A stretch of DNA of 64,000 bases from Janthinobacterium sp. 61 (GTDB lineage: Bacteria; Pseudomonadota; Gammaproteobacteria; Burkholderiales; Burkholderiaceae_D): positions 4,526,001 to 4,590,000 of the forward strand of contig NZ_PJMQ01000001.1 of assembly GCF_002846335.1 (NCBI RefSeq). Reading direction: 5' to 3'. Shown one piece after another: positions 1,252 through 55,557 of this stretch (position 1 is the stretch's first letter; every line of letters begins with the position of its first letter). The notes beneath the pieces were generated by a model. It was not told the DNA's origin. It made no database searches and worked only from the letters and a program-made list of their open reading frames with translations. A program made the translations under genes and the position numbers.

Positions 1252-2175
1252 TTAGTGCGAACGGATCATAGTACCAAAAGCCTGTTCGGTCAACACTTCC
1301 AGCAATAATGAGTGTTCGATGCGGCCATCGATGATGTGCACCGTGTTCACGCCGGACTTGGCGGCGTCGAGCGCGGACGAGATCTTTGGCAGCATGCCGC
1401 CCGAGATCGTGCCATCGGCGAACATCTCGTCGATTTCACGCGCCGACAGATCGGTCACTAGGTTGCCCTGCTTGTCCTGGACGCCGGCGATGTTGGTCAT
1501 CATGATCAGCTTTTCCGCTTTCAGGATTTCCGCGATTTTTCCCGCCACGACGTCGGCGTTGATGTTGTAGGCCTGGCCGTCCTGGCCGAAACCGATCGGC
1601 GAGATGATGGGGATGAAGGCGTCGTCCTGCAGCGCCTTGACGACCGCCGGGTTGATCGCGTCGATCTCGCCCACAAAGCCGATGTCGAGGAATTCGCCCG
1701 GATGTTCGCGGTCCGGCATCTGCATCTTGCGCGCGCGGATCAAGCCGCCATCCTTGCCCGTCAGGCCGACCGCCTGGCCACCGTAATGGTTGATCAGCAT
1801 GACGATATCCTGCTGTACTTCGCCGCCCAGCACCCACTCCACCACTTCCATGGTTTCTTCATCGGTGATGCGCATGCCTTGCACGAAGGTGCCCTGCTTG
1901 CCGATCTTTTTCAGCGCGTTGTCGATCTGCGGTCCGCCGCCGTGTACCACGACCGGGTTCATGCCGACGAGCTTGAGCAGAATGACGTCGCGCGCGAAGC
2001 CGTGCTTCAGGCGTTCGTCCGTCATGGCATTGCCACCGTATTTGATGACGATGGTCTTGCCATGGAAATTGCGAATGTAGGGAAGGGCCTCGGCCAGAAT
2101 CTGCGCCTTGATTTGCGGCGACACCGCCGTCAAGTCGTCATTCATGTCCAGGTTCAAGTTAGCTAGTTGATTCAT
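1252..2175 (-). CDS. argB: Acetylglutamate kinase
   Basis: A 307-residue amino-acid kinase catalysing ATP-dependent phosphorylation of N-acetyl-L-glutamate, the second step of arginine biosynthesis; cytoplasmic. The glycine-rich KYGGNAM segment (about residue 45) and VHGGGPQI (about 78) form the phosphate-binding loops. The C-terminal part has the [13 protein letters not shown] nucleotide-binding segment and the GGMLPKI motif typical of ArgB. Length and motif order match the family. The start MNQLANL gives an N-terminal arm of about 30 residues before the conserved domain; a downstream ATG at residue 11 is possible. No other arg gene is adjacent. Confidence 0.97.
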
Positions 2176-2376
2176 GGCGAGTCCGGAAAATAGATTTGTG
2201 AGATTTTACAGGGAAGAAGAAAATCTTGGAGGCATTATAGGGCGATCTTGTTGTATTTTCCCTGATGATCCTATAGTCTGGTCCGATATGTTCGCCAGCC
2301 AGCCCTTTTACTGCCAGTTACATCTGCGTCGCACCCCGGTGCAGCATGACACACACTTGCCAATTCAAACACAGCC

Positions 2377-2580
2377 ATGAGCCAGTGCACTCTCTGCGGC
2401 GCCACCTTCCAGTGTGGCCAGACTGCCCCGCAGACCAGCGAACCATGCTGGTGCACGGCCTTGCCGCCCGCCATGCCCGTGCCCGGTAGTCGCGCCATCG
2501 GCTGCTGGTGCCCGGCCTGCCTTCAAGCGCATATTGCCACCCTGACACCTCCTCTAAAAGCGGTCACGTCGACCAATTAA
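2377..2580 (+). CDS. Cysteine-rich CWC family protein
   Basis: A 67-residue protein with CxxC at the start (MSQCTLCG), then FQCG, a CWC triplet and a closing CWCPACL. This spacing matches the small Cys_rich_CWC family, presumed metal-binding (probably zinc); the cellular role is unknown. Nothing beyond the cysteine pattern supports a function. It sits alone between argB (divergent) and the histidine kinase downstream, with about 200 bases of upstream DNA. Confidence 0.8.
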   Translation: MSQCTLCGATFQCGQTAPQTSEPCWCTALPPAMPVPGSRAIGCWCPACLQAHIATLTPPLKAVTSTN

Positions 2581-2673
2581 GCGCTTCGGTACAAATTGCT
2601 TTGCAATAAACCTTGCTTTCCGTAGGGGAATACGGTCAGACTTCGATTCTAAAGAATTTCTGACAGGAAAGTC

Positions 2674-5600
2674 ATGCGCTTCAGGGATATCCGCATCGGC
2701 GTGCGCATCAATGCCGGTTATGCCATCTTGATCATGTTGATGCTGGTCGTCATTGTCCTGGCGGGCAGCCGCATCTATGCCATCCGCGCCGAGACCGACG
2801 ATATCCTGCAGCGCGACTGGGTCGCCGCCAAGGCCACCAGCAAGATCCATGGGCTGGCGCGCGAGGCGGCCACGCGCATCGGCAACCTGCCGAACCAGCA
2901 CGAGCTGGCACGGCGCCAGGAGAATCAGGCGCGCCTGGAAGCGATCAAGCAAGGCATCGATGAGCAGGTGCGCATCCTCGATGGTCTCGATGCGCGGCCC
3001 GAGGAACGGCGCCTGCTGGAGCAGATGCATCTTGCACGCGCCGACTACTATGTTTCGCTCAAGGCGATGTTCGAACTGATCGAGCGCGGCGAGGATGCCC
3101 GCGCCGAGCAGGCCATGCAGACGCAGACCTTGCCGGTGCTGGAAAAGGTGTTGCTGTATGTGGGGCAGCTCGATGAGTTGCATCAGCAATTGATACGCGA
3201 CAGCGCGGCCAGGATACGCAACGATATCGATACATCGCTGATCCTGATGGGCGGCATCGGGCTGGCAGCCCTGTTGATCGGCCTGGCCTTTGCCTGGTCG
3301 GCGCGCTCGATCACGCGTCCGCTGGGCGAGGCGGTTGCAATCGCTACGCGCGTGGCCAACGGCGACTTCAGTTCCGTCATCGAAGTGACGTCGCGCGATG
3401 AGACGGGCGAATTGCTGCAGGCGCTGAAAAACATGAGTACCAGCCTGGCCGTCGAGCAGGACCTGCGCCATGCCGTTGAAGTGGCCGAGGATGCGACCAA
3501 GATGAAGTCGGACTTCCTGGCCAATATGTCGCACGAGATCCGCACGCCGATGAACGGTATCATCGGCATGACCCACCTGGCGCTGCAGACGGAGCTCACA
3601 TCGACCCAGCGCAATTACCTGGAAAAGGTGGAGTCGGCTTCGAAGAACCTGCTGGCCATCATCGACGACATCCTCGATTTCTCGAAGATCGAGGCGGGCA
3701 AGATGGCCTTTGAAAAAGTCGATTTTTTCCTCGAGGACGTGCTGGCGCAGATCGCTGACCTTTCCGTGATGCGGGCCCAGGACAAGGGACTCGAACTGCT
3801 GTTCGACATCGGCCACGATGTGCCGAACGCATTGCAGGGCGATCCGCTGCGCCTGGGCCAGGTACTCATCAATCTGACCAACAATGCCATCAAATTTACA
3901 GACAAGGGCGAGATCGTCGTCAGCATCCGCTTGCAGCAGCTGGAAGAACATGCGGCGGTGCTGCGTGTCGATGTGCGCGACACGGGCATCGGCCTGACGC
4001 CGCCCCAGCGCAGCAAGTTGTTCCAGGCATTTACCCAGGCCGACACCTCCACAACGCGCCACCATGGCGGCACGGGCCTGGGACTGACGATCAGCAAGCG
4101 CCTGGTGGAAATGATGGAAGGCGAGATCGACCTGGTCAGCGAAGCGGGTGTGGGCAGCACCTTTTTCTTCACCGCCCGCTTCGGCCTGGCCGCCGTGCCG
4201 CGCGATAGCTTGCCAGTACCACAGCAGTTTGATGGCCTGCGCGTGCTGGTGGTCGACGACAACCCCAGTGCGCGCGAAATCTTCGTCAGCATGCTGACGG
4301 CGCTGGGCTTCGAGGCGCGTGCCGTGTTTGGCGGCGTGCTGGCCATCGGCGCCGTGGCGCAGGCGCGCGCAGAGGGGCGCCCCTACGGGCTAGTGCTGAT
4401 GGACTGGAAAATGCCGGGCATGAACGGCCTCGATACCCTGGCCGGCATCCGTGCCGATGCCGCCGGCACCGATGCTACGCCGGCCTGCATCATGGTCACG
4501 GCCTTCCATCGCGAAGCGCTGCTGGAGGCGGCGCGCCAGCGGGAGTTGCCGCTCGATGGCGTATTGAACAAGCCGGTCAGCGCCTCGACCCTGCTCGACC
4601 AGATATCGTTCGTGTTTGGCGGCGTGACAGGGCAGAGTCGCAAAACGCAGCGCCAGAGCAGCTACCGCGACGACGAACGCGCCCTGCGCGGTGCCTGGCT
4701 GCTGCTGGTGGAGGATAATGAGGTGAACCAGGAAGTGGCTCAGCATATTCTCAACGATGCGGGCATCCGTGTCGACATCGCCAGCAATGGTGCCATCGCG
4801 CTGGCGAAGATCGAGGAAAACGCTTATGACGGCGTATTGATGGATTGCCAGATGCCAGTGATGGATGGCTACCAGGCGACGCGAAAACTGCGCCAGGATC
4901 CCCGCTATTCGAATTTGCCCGTGATCGCCATGACGGCCAATGCCATGGTGGGCGACAAGGAAAAATGCCTGGACGCCGGCATGAACGATTTTATCGCCAA
5001 GCCGATCGACGTGGCGCAGCTGTTCGGTACCCTGGCGCGCTGGATCGCGCCGGCCACGCCGCAGGAAATGACGGCGGTGGTGGCACAGCCGGAAGCGGAG
5101 CTGCCCGTGATCGCCGGCTTGAAAATGGCTGAAGCCATGCGGCGCGTGGGAGGCAATGCCACTTTGATGCGAAAATTGCTGGATCGTTTTGTGGAAACCC
5201 AGTTCGATGCCATGCAGCGCATCGTCGCCGCTATCGAGAACAACCAGCTCGAGACGGCGATCCGCGAAGCGCATACCCTGAAGGGCCTGGCCGGCAATAT
5301 TGGCGCCGGCGGCCTGGCCGACAGCGCCGCGCGGGTCGAGCACCTGCTCAGCCTGGGTTCGCACGATGGCTTGCCGCAGGCCCTGGCTGCCTGCACCCTG
5401 GTGCTCGACGAACTGGTGCCGAAGATCGTGCTGGCCATGCAGTCGCGCGGCAATGCGGCCGAGGCGGGCAGCGCGGCGGGGGCGCAAGTGGCCCCGGTCG
5501 ACCGGGCGCACCTGGAAGCGGGTTTGCGCGAACTGTCGCAACTGCTGCTGCAGGACGATGCGCAGGCCGTCAAACACCTCGACGGCATCGGTCCCGTACT

Positions 5601-51644: not shown

Positions 51645-52400
51645 TTAAGAGCGGTTCACGGGAGTGACCGGATTGACAGAGTGTATATCGATTCTGTCTC
51701 CAGCCAAACGAATTTGCGCGGGTCCACGCGCCATTTCCGCAGGGAAACCATCCTCGAACGTGCGGTACACGCCGGCGATCGAGACCAGTTCCGGTTCCAT
51801 GGACAGTGCGAAGATGCGCGCCTGGGCATTGCCCGAGGCGCCGGCCAGCGCGCGGCCGTACAGCGACGAATACACGTGGATGCTGCCGTCGGCGATGATT
51901 TCGGCGCCATTGTTGACGACAGCGGTGATGATCAGGTCGCAGCCGCGCGCGTAAATGCGCTGGCCGGCACGCACGGGCGTGTCGATCACCATCACTTGCG
52001 CTTCGGCGCCCGACTGGGCGGCCGCCGTGGCGGTATCCTTGGGGCCATCCTTGGGCGGGGCATCGTCGCGCGTCTTGCCGCTGTCGAGGCTCAAGCCTTG
52101 CGCCAGGATGGCGTCATGCATCTCGGCCGGCGCATTGCGCACAGCCACGGCATTCAAACGGTATTTTTTCAGCAGTGCCACGAGGGCGGCCCAGTCGATG
52201 GGTACGCTGCCGGGCGGCAAGGCGGCCACGTCCAGTACGGCCAGGTCGTCTTCGAAAAAGTCCGCCACGCCTCCCGTCATGTCACGCAAGGCGGCATCGA
52301 GTGCCTGCGTATCGGCGCTATGCATAATGGCGGAGACGGCAACGACGGTGGAAATCTTGATTTCGATAGGCTTCTGCGACGGGCTTTTGGACATAAACAT
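51645..52400 (-). CDS. minC: Septum-site-determining inhibitor MinC
   Basis: A 251-residue FtsZ inhibitor. The N-terminal domain spans about 1-105; a charged linker (KTRDDAPPKDGPKDTATAA) leads to the C-terminal right-handed beta-helix with RAGQRIYARGCDLIITAVVNNGAEIIADGSIHVY, which binds MinD. A second ATG at residue 3 is an equally good start. It heads the min operon, 37 bases before minD. Confidence 0.95.
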   Translation of the reverse strand: MFMSKSPSQKPIEIKISTVVAVSAIMHSADTQALDAALRDMTGGVADFFEDDLAVLDVAALPPGSVPIDWAALVALLKKYRLNAVAVRNAPAEMHDAILAQGLSLDSGKTRDDAPPKDGPKDTATAAAQSGAEAQVMVIDTPVRAGQRIYARGCDLIITAVVNNGAEIIADGSIHVYSSLYGRALAGASGNAQARIFALSMEPELVSIAGVYRTFEDGFPAEMARGPAQIRLAGDRIDIHSVNPVTPVNRS

Positions 52401-52622
52401 TTATCAAAGTGAAACTGCGGCAGGCCAGATGTTCCGTATGGCAACAATGGGAGCAGTAAATTTCTTGCATTCTACTGCAAAAAAATCAGCATCAGGGGCC
52501 TGGCGCGTGCTATTCCGCAGGGCAACACCTACTTCATGTCAAAAAAAATGGGCGGTGCCCCGGAAAACCGGTGCGCCGCCCCGCAAGCCGCCGAGAATGC
52601 GCCCTGAAGGCGCTGTCCTGGA

Positions 52623-54530
52623 TCAAGCCGCGCGCATCTGCCGTGCCGCCGCAACCATATTTTTTACAGCCGCTTCCGTTTCCAGCCAGCCACGCGTCTT
52701 CAAGCCGCAGTCCGGGTTGACCCGTAAATGGGCTGGTGGAATCACGGCGATGCGGTAGGCGCGCGTGGCCCAGTCCAGGTAGGCGTCCCACTGGCCGCGG
52801 CGCAGCGGCAAGCCGTCGCGGATGGCCGGCTCGTCGATCTGGATGCTGCCGATGCCGGCCGTTTCCAGGTCTGCCACCTCGTCGCGGATGGCCAGGGCCA
52901 GTTGCAGCGCCGTGGTGGCGCGCGACTGGTCGTCGCGCACGAACGAGCATTGCAAGATCGTCACCGGCCCCGTCAGCATGCCCTTCACCGGTTTATGCGT
53001 CAGGCTTTGCGCGTGCACCGTCCATTCGACGGTCATGGCGGCCGGGCGCTGCACGTCGCCGTAGATGATGGGAGGCTTGACGCAGCGCGAGCCGTACGAT
53101 TGCACCCAGCCCAGGCGCGTGAAGGCGAAACCGTCCAATTGCCCGCCGAAGTATTCGATCATGTCGTTGCGTTCCGCTTCGCCATGCACGAGTACGTCCA
53201 GGCCCAGCGCTTCCTGGCGGATGGCCGTCGTTGGCGGGAAGGAGCCGATGGTCGTTGTCGGGAAGTCGGGCAGTTGCAGGCGCTGCGTCACTTGCGGACG
53301 GTGCACGCGGGGGCTGGTACGGCGGCTGGCAATGGCCAGGCGAGACATGGCCAATGCGGCCAGCGCGGCGTCATCGGGATGGCCTTCGAGCGCGCCCTTG
53401 AGGACGGCGATCTCCGACAGCTTTTCCGTGGCAAACGCCAGCCAGGTCCGGATTTCACCGTCGAGCTCCGTCTCGGCTTCCAGGCTGAACGGTACGTGCA
53501 GCAGGGAGCATGACGGCGCCAGCCACAGGTTGCCGTTGCGTTTGGCTGCCAGTGGCTGCAGCACGGCGAGGGCCGCGTCGAGGTCGGTGCGCCAGATGTT
53601 GCGCCCGTCGACGATGCCGATCGACAAGACTTTATGCGCGGGCAGCCAGTCCGTCACGCTGATCAATTCATGCGGCGCGCGGATGCCGTCGACATGCAGG
53701 CCGGCCACGGGCAGGCGGCACGTCAGGCTGAGGTTTTCTTCCAGCGGCGAGAAATACGTGGCCAGCAAGATATTCACGCCCACCTGGTTCAACTGCCAAT
53801 ACGTGCTTTCGAAGGCGCTGCGCCAGGCGTTGGGCAAATCCAGGCCCAGGATCGGTTCGTCGACCTGCACCCACGTCACGCCTTGCTGCTTCAGGCGGTC
53901 GAGCAGGGCGCTGTAGACGGGCAGCAACTGTTCCAGCAGGGCCAGGCGCTCGAAACCCGGTGTCTTTTCCTTGCCCAGCCAGAGGAAGGTGAGGGGGCCG
54001 ATCAGGGCCGCCTTGACCTGGTGGCCGAGCGCTTGCGCCTCGGCCACTTCCGCCAGCAGGCGCTCGCAAGCCAGCGAGAAGCGGGTCTGCGGCGACAATT
54101 CGGGCACCAGGTAATGGTAATTGCTGTCAAACCACTTGGTCATTTCCAGCGCGGGATTGCCAGCGCTGTGTTCGTGGGGGGCATGGCCATGGTTGCAAGC
54201 GGCGGGTTCGGCATGATTGTCGTTGCCGCGCGCCATTGTGAAATAGCGCGACAGCGATGACTGCTCTGGCGCGAAATTGAAACGGGCCGGTTCGCAGCCC
54301 AGCAGCTGGATATGGTTGGCCATGTAGTCGTAAAAGGCGAAGTCGCCTACGGTGACGTAGTCGAGTCCGGCGCCCCTTTGTTGCGCCCAGTGGGCCGCGC
54401 GCAGTTGCTGGCCCGTGGCTTCCAGGGCGGCCTCGGATACCTCGCCACGCCAGTGGCTTTCCAGCGCCAGTTTCAGTTCACGCGCGGCACCGATATGGGG
54501 AAAGCCAAGGATGTGGGTACAAATGGTCAT
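52623..54530 (-). CDS. metE: Cobalamin-independent methionine synthase homologue with three internal deletions
   Basis: An open frame of 635 residues clearly homologous to MetE (E. coli 753). The N-terminal domain is complete, with a His-rich insert ([13 protein letters not shown]). In the C-terminal domain [23 protein letters not shown] and [15 protein letters not shown] are present. Three blocks appear missing: about 25 residues before [13 protein letters not shown] (near 53275-53280), about 30 between TTAIRQ and EALGLDVL (near 53214-53219), and about 85 between YRIA and LRVNPDCG (near 52721-52750). The last takes away the H-x-C and Glu zinc ligands; only the NPDCG cysteine remains. The deletions keep the frame. 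The protein is unlikely to be catalytically active as read. The start at 54530 ([14 protein letters not shown]) is the conserved one. Confidence 0.85.
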
Positions 54531-54614: not shown

Positions 54615-54627
54615 TGAAAATAATTCA
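54615..54627. promoter_or_regulatory. MetR-binding box between metE and metR
   Basis: TGAAAATAATTCA matches the MetR consensus TGAA-N5-TTCA exactly. It lies 22 bases before the metR start and 85 bases before the metE start, where MetR would activate metE and control its own gene with homocysteine as co-effector, as known in enteric bacteria. Confidence 0.75.
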
Positions 54628-54648: not shown

Positions 54649-55557
54649 ATGCTAGAAATCCGCCACCTGCGCACCCTGAGTGCCTTGCGTTCGTCCGGCA
54701 GCCTGGTGCGCGCCGCGCAACTGCTCAATCTGACCCAGTCGGCCCTGTCGCACCAGATCCGTTTGCTGGAAGAGCGCTACAAGGCGCCCTTGTTCGAGCG
54801 CAAGTCGATGCCGATCGCGTTTACGGCCACGGGCAGCCGGTTGCTGGAGCTGGCCGACAAGCTGCTGCCCGAGATCGAGCTGGCCGAGCGCGAGGTGGCG
54901 CGCCTGTCGCAGGGCGACCAGGGGCAGTTGCGCGTGGCGCTCGAATGCCATACCTGCTTCGACTGGCTCATGCCGGTGATGGATGCGTTCCGCCAGCGCT
55001 GGCCGGAAGTGGAGATCGACCTGGTGTCGGGCTTTCACAGCGAACCGGCGGATTTGCTGCGCTCGGGCGAGGCGGACCTCGTGATCGGCTCGCCGTATGG
55101 CCCCGATTTCACCGTGTTTCCCCTGTTCCGCTTTGAAATGCTGGTGGTGATGGCGCAGAAGCACCGCCTGCAGGCGCAGCGCCGGCTCGTGGCGGCCGAC
55201 TTTACGGGCGAGACCCTGATCACCTATCCGGTGCCGGAAGAGCGCATCGATCTGATCCGCGAAGTGCTGCGGCCGGCCGGCATCCAGTTTGAACGCCGCA
55301 CGGCGGAACTGACGGTGGCCGTGCTGCAACTGGTGGCGAGCCGGCGCGGCATCGCCGCTTTGCCGAACTGGGCCATCAAGAATTACGTCGATTACGATTA
55401 TGTGGTGGCGCGCCCGGTGGGCGAACAGGGCTTGTGGAGCGACCTGTATGTCTCGGTGCCGGAGCAGTTGCAAGACAAGGCGTATGTGCGCGATTTCGTC
55501 AGTGTGATACGCGAGCAGTGCGCGGCCTCGCTCGACGGTATCAAATTGTTGTCCTGA
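54649..55557 (+). CDS. metR: LysR-type regulator MetR
   Basis: A 302-residue LysR regulator that opens with [20 protein letters not shown] and has the helix-turn-helix [17 protein letters not shown], strongly like MetR. Family MetR activates metE (and often metH) in response to homocysteine. It is divergent from metE with a consensus MetR box between the genes. Unlike metE, it appears intact. Confidence 0.93.

What the first reader, a model, noticed from the sequence alone, without database searches (positions are those of the whole stretch)
52623..54530. metE with an open frame but three internal deletions, including most of the zinc site
By recall of E. coli MetE (753 residues), the frame has lost about 25 residues before [13 protein letters not shown], about 30 between TTAIRQ and EALGLDVL, and about 85 between YRIA and LRVNPDCG. 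The third gap takes away HMCYCEFND (His641, Cys643) and the region of Glu665; only the Cys726 equivalent remains. All three gaps keep the frame, which is unlikely by chance in simple decay (about 1 in 27). The gap edges fit short direct repeats (CGCCTG, CGCCAG), pointing to slippage. Either methionine synthesis has moved to MetH, or the shortened protein has another role, or the assembly is wrong.
Basis: partly seen in the sequence, partly recalled or inferred. Interest (0 to 1): 0.78.

Follow-up and report, generated by a model that had tools for sequence, protein, structure and literature searches.

The report
Half-dismantled second methionine synthase gene
A spare methionine-making enzyme gene in Janthinobacterium has lost its catalytic half through in-frame deletions shared between species, yet the other half still looks protected by selection, so the remnant may have a second job or may be a gene dying in an unusually orderly way.

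Summary
The 635-aa ORF is the metR-linked second MetE (metE2) of a Janthinobacterium, with in-frame losses of 25, 30 and 85 residues; the last removes zinc ligands His, Cys and Glu. It is no assembly error: 20 of the 120 best database relatives, and 4 of 40 genus genomes, share the 85-residue deletion. A linked Trp-to-Arg change is in 18 of those 20 and 0 of 79 full-length relatives, so this null allele probably arose once and moved between species by recombination. The genome keeps MetH, an intact MetE1 and MesD/MesX. Of 36 resolved genus loci, 19 are intact, 8 open but catalytically dead, 6 broken, 3 without a remnant. In the 8, private changes look neutral in the catalytic half (88 N/29 S) but constrained in the N-terminal half (56/58, like intact genes); there, substrate-contact motifs decay as fast as the catalytic half while the rest of the barrel does not. 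This suggests a kept, non-catalytic N-barrel. Caveats: the window's own copy (12 N/7 S) cannot prove it, the motif borders were set after seeing the hits, and ordinary decay with recombination is not excluded.

The parts
52623..54530 (-). metE2 ORF, 635 aa, MetE paralogue next to metR that lacks the zinc site
53325..54530 (-). N-terminal barrel (residues 1 to about 402), complete; AlphaFold2 pLDDT blocks 88-98 outside residues 101-140
54153..54227 (-). His/Cys-rich loop of the N-barrel (about residues 102-126), also His-rich in congeneric and several other Burkholderiales metE2 relatives
53275..53280 (-). junction of the 25-residue deletion (interdomain linker), position approximate within the repeat
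53214..53219 (-). junction of the 30-residue deletion (start of the C-barrel), position approximate within the repeat
52744..52750 (-). junction of the 85-residue (255-bp) deletion that removes three of four zinc ligands and the active-site His; found in 20 of 120 homologous clusters
52722..52724 (-). codon of the Trp-to-Arg change (W741R in full-length numbering, residue 603 here) found in 18 of 20 alleles with the 85-residue deletion and 0 of 79 full-length clusters
52541..52582 (-). hairpin plus U-run, probable metE2 terminator; a strict pattern finds it in 18 of 36 loci, among them all 8 open-but-dead ones
   Evidence: the consensus scan did not list it (imperfect stem)
54615..54627 (.). 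MetR-box-like palindrome TGAA-N5-TTCA between metE2 and metR (consensus recalled)
   Evidence: present in 35 of 36 loci (G035 has Ns), so also where metE2 is dead or gone
54649..55557 (+). MetR-like LysR regulator, divergent neighbour
   Evidence: (best model MetR, 245 bits, below its cut-off of 382)
51645..52400 (-). minC, downstream neighbour, followed by minD and probably minE (names recalled)

Best explanation
The ORF is a redundant, metR-linked second MetE whose catalytic (C-terminal) barrel has been destroyed. Shown by comparison: an in-frame 255-bp deletion, probably of single origin, took three of the four zinc ligands; it sits on several different gene backgrounds in Janthinobacterium, which points to homologous recombination between species, and other in-frame deletions in the linker and the start of the C-barrel are combined with it. 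Inferred: the product cannot make methionine, which MetH, MetE1 and MesD/MesX supply instead. Also inferred: the N-terminal barrel is still made and held by selection as a folded, non-catalytic protein. It is losing its folate contacts (Lys20 above all) but not its conserved core, so whatever it still does is not methyl transfer from folate. A plausible but untested candidate is a contact or metal-binding role through its His/Cys-rich loop.
For: Gap map and lost residues. Same deletion in 4 of 40 genus genomes and 20 of 120 clusters; linked W741R in 18 of 20 and 0 of 79 full-length. Mosaic alleles: P0021 has an N-half 99.7% identical to full-length P0053 but carries the deletion; P0003 and P0016 are 99.2% identical in the N-half and differ in the zinc site, while P0003 is 96.0% identical to P0001 in the C-half and 86.2% in the N-half. 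The carriers are not a clade in the flanking-gene tree. Redundancy: MetH 40/40, MesX 33/40, MetE1 27/40 and in 8 of 8 open-but-dead genomes. Private substitutions in the 8 open-but-dead lineages: C-half 88 N/29 S (fraction N 0.75, neutral 0.78), N-half 56/58 versus 108/114 in 16 intact genes. At positions at least 90% conserved across 46 diverse MetE, residues unseen in intact genes: N-barrel motifs 11/192, C-half 62/914, N-barrel outside the motifs 3/568; intact genes 1/384, 3/1840, 3/1136; with the K20T shared by G036 and G063 counted once, motif versus rest P = 1e-4. Folate contacts named in the T. maritima paper (mapping by motif is mine): 6 of 24 changed in dead, 0 of 48 in intact genes. 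Control: four heavily broken remnants give 57 N/10 S. Hairpin between metE2 and minC.
Against: G000 itself gives 12 N/7 S in the N-half, not distinguishable from neutral (P = 0.18), and G017 8/3 likewise. The motif borders (residues up to 20 and 126-143) were drawn after seeing the hits. In the 62-residue-deletion group the N-half is not slower than the C-half (51/371 versus 23/195, P = 0.63), and in the P0004-P0010 group the slowdown is not significant (12/371 versus 10/195, P = 0.27). Recombination gives the halves different histories (N-half dS 0.267, C-half 0.080 between G036 and G063). Pairwise dN/dS between carriers is 0.19 for the gene and 0.27 for the C-half, not 1, so most differences between carriers are not post-deletion neutral changes. 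No expression data; the MetR box is kept in dead loci too. The model with a good N-barrel was built on an alignment of full-length relatives.
Confidence: 0.55

Rival explanations
1. Plain pseudogene decay of a redundant gene. The frame is open because open frames are what was noticed, and the N-half looks constrained only because recombination keeps refreshing it or because the loss is recent.
For: 6 of 36 resolved loci are broken remnants, some with out-of-frame deletions, and 3 gave no remnant by blastn; mosaic N-halves; G000 and G017 N-halves compatible with neutrality; no N-half slowdown in the 62-residue group; pairwise dN/dS between carriers below 1 in both halves.
Against: Lag or refresh should treat N-barrel motif and core positions alike, but 11/192 and 3/568 differ. 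Synonymous ages of the halves match in the four dead lineages without the 85-residue deletion (37 S in 1572 codons, 23 S in 1118) while N/S differs (38/37 and 71/23). In the 12 clusters with one shared 30-residue deletion the N-half evolves at about half the C-half rate (46/371 versus 64/280, P = 0.0014).
Confidence: 0.3
2. The frame is kept open only to avoid harm: polarity on minCDE downstream, or aggregation of a frameshifted product.
Against: A hairpin with U-run follows metE2 before minC, and minC aligns at 88-98% identity in 5 of the 6 genomes with broken metE2 (it was not in the stretch for G032). Neither idea explains low N/S in the N-half with neutral N/S in the C-half.
Confidence: 0.08
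3. The shortened protein is still an active methionine synthase.
For: Open frame; scores above NCBI's PRK05222 cut-off (816.7 against 541).
Against: Three of four zinc ligands, the active-site His and the folate Trp are missing; about four strands left in the C-half model; below the TIGR01371 cut-off (745 against 930); private changes of the C-half look neutral.
Confidence: 0.02
4. Assembly or sequencing artefact.
For: None found.
Against: Same junctions in other genomes and clusters.
Confidence: 0.01

Closest known systems
Cobalamin-independent methionine synthase MetE (PF08267 + PF01717)
   Same: Whole N-barrel, C-barrel segments, metR linkage; orthologue of the full-length metE2 of 19 congeneric genomes
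   Different: Lacks three zinc ligands, the active-site His, most of the linker and part of the C-barrel
Core methionine synthases (core-MetE; MesA-MesD; PMC7857596, passages read)
   Same: Shortened MetE relatives; this genome has MesD with MesX elsewhere
   Different: Core enzymes keep the zinc-bearing barrel and lack the N-terminal domain; here it is the reverse
N-barrel of MetE itself (duplicate of the C-barrel with its binding sites obliterated; PMC539065, abstract and passages read)
   Same: A MetE barrel kept after its own metal and homocysteine sites were lost
   Different: Here the second barrel is also losing its sites, in living species
Pseudoenzymes and mosaic pseudogenes in general (recalled)
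   Same: Catalytic residues lost, fold apparently conserved
   Different: Half-by-half release, and a null allele on several backgrounds, visible across one genus

Membership tests
MetE (functional enzyme) | Four zinc ligands His-Cys-Glu-Cys in the C-barrel | tested here: not met
   Only the Cys726 equivalent remains
MetE (functional enzyme) | Two complete (beta-alpha)8 barrels | tested here: not met
   AlphaFold2 model: N-barrel complete, pLDDT blocks mostly 88-98; C-half with about four strands, blocks 34-89
MetE (functional enzyme) | Homology over both domains | tested here: met
   PF08267 and PF01717; best Foldseek matches are MetE structures, TM by query 0.83-0.86 for ranks 1-14
MetE (functional enzyme) | Converts homocysteine to methionine | not testable with these tools
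   Needs complementation or assay
Core methionine synthase (MesD type) | Zinc-bearing C-barrel without N-barrel | tested here: not met
   N-barrel kept, zinc site lost
Pseudogene (fully neutral) | N/S near the neutral expectation along the whole gene | tested here: inconclusive
   C-half yes, N-half no when pooled over 8 lineages; G000 alone 12/7, P = 0.18
Pseudogene (fully neutral) | Broken frame | tested here: not met
   Open here and in the 7 other open-but-dead loci; broken in 6 further loci

The most novel reading that the evidence does not exclude
The metR-linked MetE of Janthinobacterium has a second, folate-independent job in its N-terminal barrel, possibly metal handling through its His/Cys-rich loop. 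Once MetE1, MetH and MesD/MesX cover methionine synthesis, the catalytic barrel is repeatedly dismantled in frame while the N-barrel is kept, giving a pseudoenzyme in the making whose null alleles spread by recombination.
Probability: 0.3. Interest if true: 0.7.

Novelty: new variant of a known kind. Interest (0 to 1): 0.45.

Why it matters
It catches a textbook two-barrel enzyme losing one barrel in several related living species, with intact, half-dead, broken and absent states side by side. What the MetE N-barrel does beyond helping to shape the active site is not clear, and these natural half-enzymes could be used to test it. It also warns annotators: relatives with the same deletion are named methionine synthase in databases although they lack the zinc site.

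Tried and rejected
Assembly error: rejected. Polarity on minCDE: weakened by a hairpin and U-run after metE2. MetR box as evidence of expression: dropped, since it is kept where metE2 is dead or gone. Cobalamin riboswitch near metE1 or metE2: none at gathering threshold in L001 and L002. First AlphaFold2 run with 29 close relatives failed (pLDDT 39; its input also lacked the first Met by a coordinate slip); repeated with 46 diverse homologues. First metE1 baseline script picked wrong frames and is not used, redone; an ORF script stopped with an error and was redone. Association of metE2 loss with metE1 presence: 15 of 27 lost with metE1, 2 of 9 without, P = 0.13, not significant. Vertical inheritance of the 85-residue deletion: the carriers are not a clade in the flanking-gene tree, which has one anomalous long branch (G013/G023). 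Pairwise dN/dS was tried first and set aside because recombination mixes histories; its values are given under evidence against.

Literature: searches returned 0 papers; some searches listed 12, 8 and 4, none of whose titles names this gene. PMC539065 was read in passages and its section 9, PMC7857596 in passages, the rest only as listings.

Rows dropped or limits: BJB426 left out of counts as identical to G063. Outgroups G023, G028, G035 left out of the private-substitution counts. Unresolved, not counted: G001 (split contigs), G014 (contig end), G022 and G027 (no clear hit). The protein sample is the best 120 of 8000 scored, which favours long, open proteins; P0001 has no source shown and may include the window's own genome, and P0035, P0045 and P0063 have the lengths and about the contig sizes of G061, G036 and G063. 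Of the 39 'dead' clusters, 5 fail only at the Ser433 column. In 7 of the 20 alleles (P0004-P0010) the aligner sets the 85-residue gap one column earlier because they read Ser for Ile beside it, as zinc-bearing P0016 does. The metE1 baseline used 20 of 27 genomes. Of the 80 loci, 47 were checked and 46 aligned. The hits are residues unseen in intact genes, so shared ones count once per genome. The figures tested were typed in.

Full report
What is there. The ORF at 52623-54530 (-) encodes 635 aa with both MetE domains, the catalytic one in two stretches. It starts 118 bp from a divergent metR-like gene and ends about 225 bp before minC, with a hairpin and U-run in between. Aligned with orthologues from the same genus, which names Janthinobacterium, it lacks 25 residues of the linker, 30 residues at the start of the catalytic barrel and 85 residues holding three zinc ligands and the active-site His.

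How common it is. Of 40 genus genomes, 36 loci could be resolved. In 19 metE2 is full length with all tested residues kept. In 8 the frame is open but catalytic residues are lost: G000, G036, G061 and G063 by the 85-residue deletion, G007, G008, G017 and G031 by other deletions or substitutions. In 6 only broken pieces remain (G005, G011, G013, G018, G032, G062) and in 3 blastn found no remnant (G003, G012, G016). Among the best 120 of 8000 scored database proteins, 39 lost at least one of ten catalytic columns (5 of them only Ser433); 21 lack the zinc region, 20 by the same 85-residue deletion and P0111 by another.

One null allele that travels. The 85-residue deletion comes with a Trp-to-Arg change nine codons away in 18 of 20 alleles and in none of 79 full-length clusters. 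It occurs with five middle regions: no gap, or 18, 25+30, 61-62 or 76 residues lost. P0021 has an N-half 99.7% identical to a full-length cluster; P0003 and P0016 share N-halves (99.2%) but differ in the zinc site, and P0003's C-half is 96.0% identical to P0001, the window's type. The four carriers among the genomes are not a clade in the flanking-gene tree. One origin followed by homologous recombination fits best; repeated deletion at the same short repeat is less likely because of the linked substitution.

Why it is tolerated. A MetH domain is in 40 of 40 genomes, MesX in 33 of 40, MetE1 in 27 of 40, and MetE1 keeps its zinc motifs in all 20 checked. The window's genome has all three, with MesD beside MesX. 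All 8 open-but-dead genomes have MetE1, but the overall association of loss with MetE1 is not significant (P = 0.13).

Is it just decay? I counted substitutions private to one genome. In 16 intact ingroup genes: N-half 108 N/114 S, C-half 41/60. In four heavily broken remnants: 57/10; two others, G011 and G032, gave 38/30 and 24/17. In the 8 open-but-dead genes: C-half 88/29, N-half 56/58. The neutral expectation from the fourfold-site spectrum is N/S 3.3-3.5. The private changes of the catalytic half therefore look neutral (P = 0.5) and those of the N-half do not (P = 2e-10). Taken singly, the N-halves of G008, G007 and G031 depart from neutrality (P = 0.0002, 0.007, 0.025); those of G000 (12/7) and G017 (8/3) do not; G036, G061 and G063 were not tested singly.

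Against a simple reading, pairwise dN/dS among the four carriers is 0.19 for the gene (intact pairs 0.20) and 0.27 for the C-half (intact 0.17), not 1. Most differences between carriers are thus probably older variation that recombination has shuffled, and dS differs between the halves of one pair (G036-G063: 0.267 and 0.080).

Recombination could create the N/C contrast, so I looked inside the N-half. At positions at least 90% conserved over 46 diverse MetE proteins, the 8 dead genes carry residues unseen in intact genes at 11 of 192 site-lineages in two motifs (residues up to 20 and 126-143), 62 of 914 in the C-half, but only 3 of 568 in the rest of the N-barrel; intact genes 1/384, 3/1840 and 3/1136. 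The motif borders were drawn after seeing the changes. With only the N-barrel folate contacts named in the T. maritima paper (Arg15, Lys18, Lys104; mapped by motif to R17, K20, K132), 6 of 24 are changed in dead genes and 0 of 48 in intact ones. Lys20 is changed in 19 of 39 dead clusters and 0 of 81 intact ones. So the N-half too has lost its part in catalysis while its core is kept. Protein groups that share one deletion give mixed results: the 30-residue group shows a slower N-half (46/371 versus 64/280, P = 0.0014), the 62-residue group (51/371 versus 23/195) and the P0004-P0010 group (12/371 versus 10/195) do not differ significantly.

Structure. With 46 diverse homologues AlphaFold2 gives a complete N-barrel (pLDDT blocks mostly 88-98) and an incomplete C-half with about four strands at lower confidence. 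The alignment consists of full-length relatives, so this shows what could fold, not what does. Foldseek's best matches are MetE structures. A loop of about 23 residues in the N-barrel is His/Cys-rich (median 5 His in 79 intact, 4 in 39 dead proteins); among the diverse set, where it could be read in 29 of 46, the median is 1 His, with His-rich loops mainly in Burkholderiales. It is a candidate for a second role, no more.

Verdict. A redundant MetE paralogue made catalytically dead by in-frame deletions that circulate in the genus, with moderate evidence that its N-barrel is still selected as a protein. Ordinary decay with recombination is the main rival.

Noticed in passing
L004:1021-2196 and 2072-3163 (-), own genome C1 about 4443794-4445936: MesD-like core methionine synthase beside MesX (PF08908): a third complete methionine route in this genome. 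MesX is in 33 of 40 genus genomes and matches in two pieces in G008.
   Followed up: partly
L002:264-324 and 2907-2968 (-): Two Rfam hits to Betaproteobacteria_toxic_sRNA (RF02278) flank the intact metE1 of the own genome.
   Followed up: no
window 54153-54227 and homologues: His/Cys-rich loop in the N-barrel of metE2 and several Burkholderiales relatives; one paper search for it returned nothing.
   Followed up: partly
L175 and L177 (G010, G006), between metE2 and minC: About 650 bp of extra sequence between metE2 and minC in two genomes.
   Followed up: no
L192 (G016), between minC and metR: No metE2 remnant was found and the space holds a 430-aa ORF on the strand of metR, epoxide-hydrolase-like by recall only; the MetR box and leader are kept.
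   Followed up: no
P0115: A metE2 protein whose end, from the zinc region on, is unlike its relatives, as after a frameshift, with the N-half intact.
   Followed up: no
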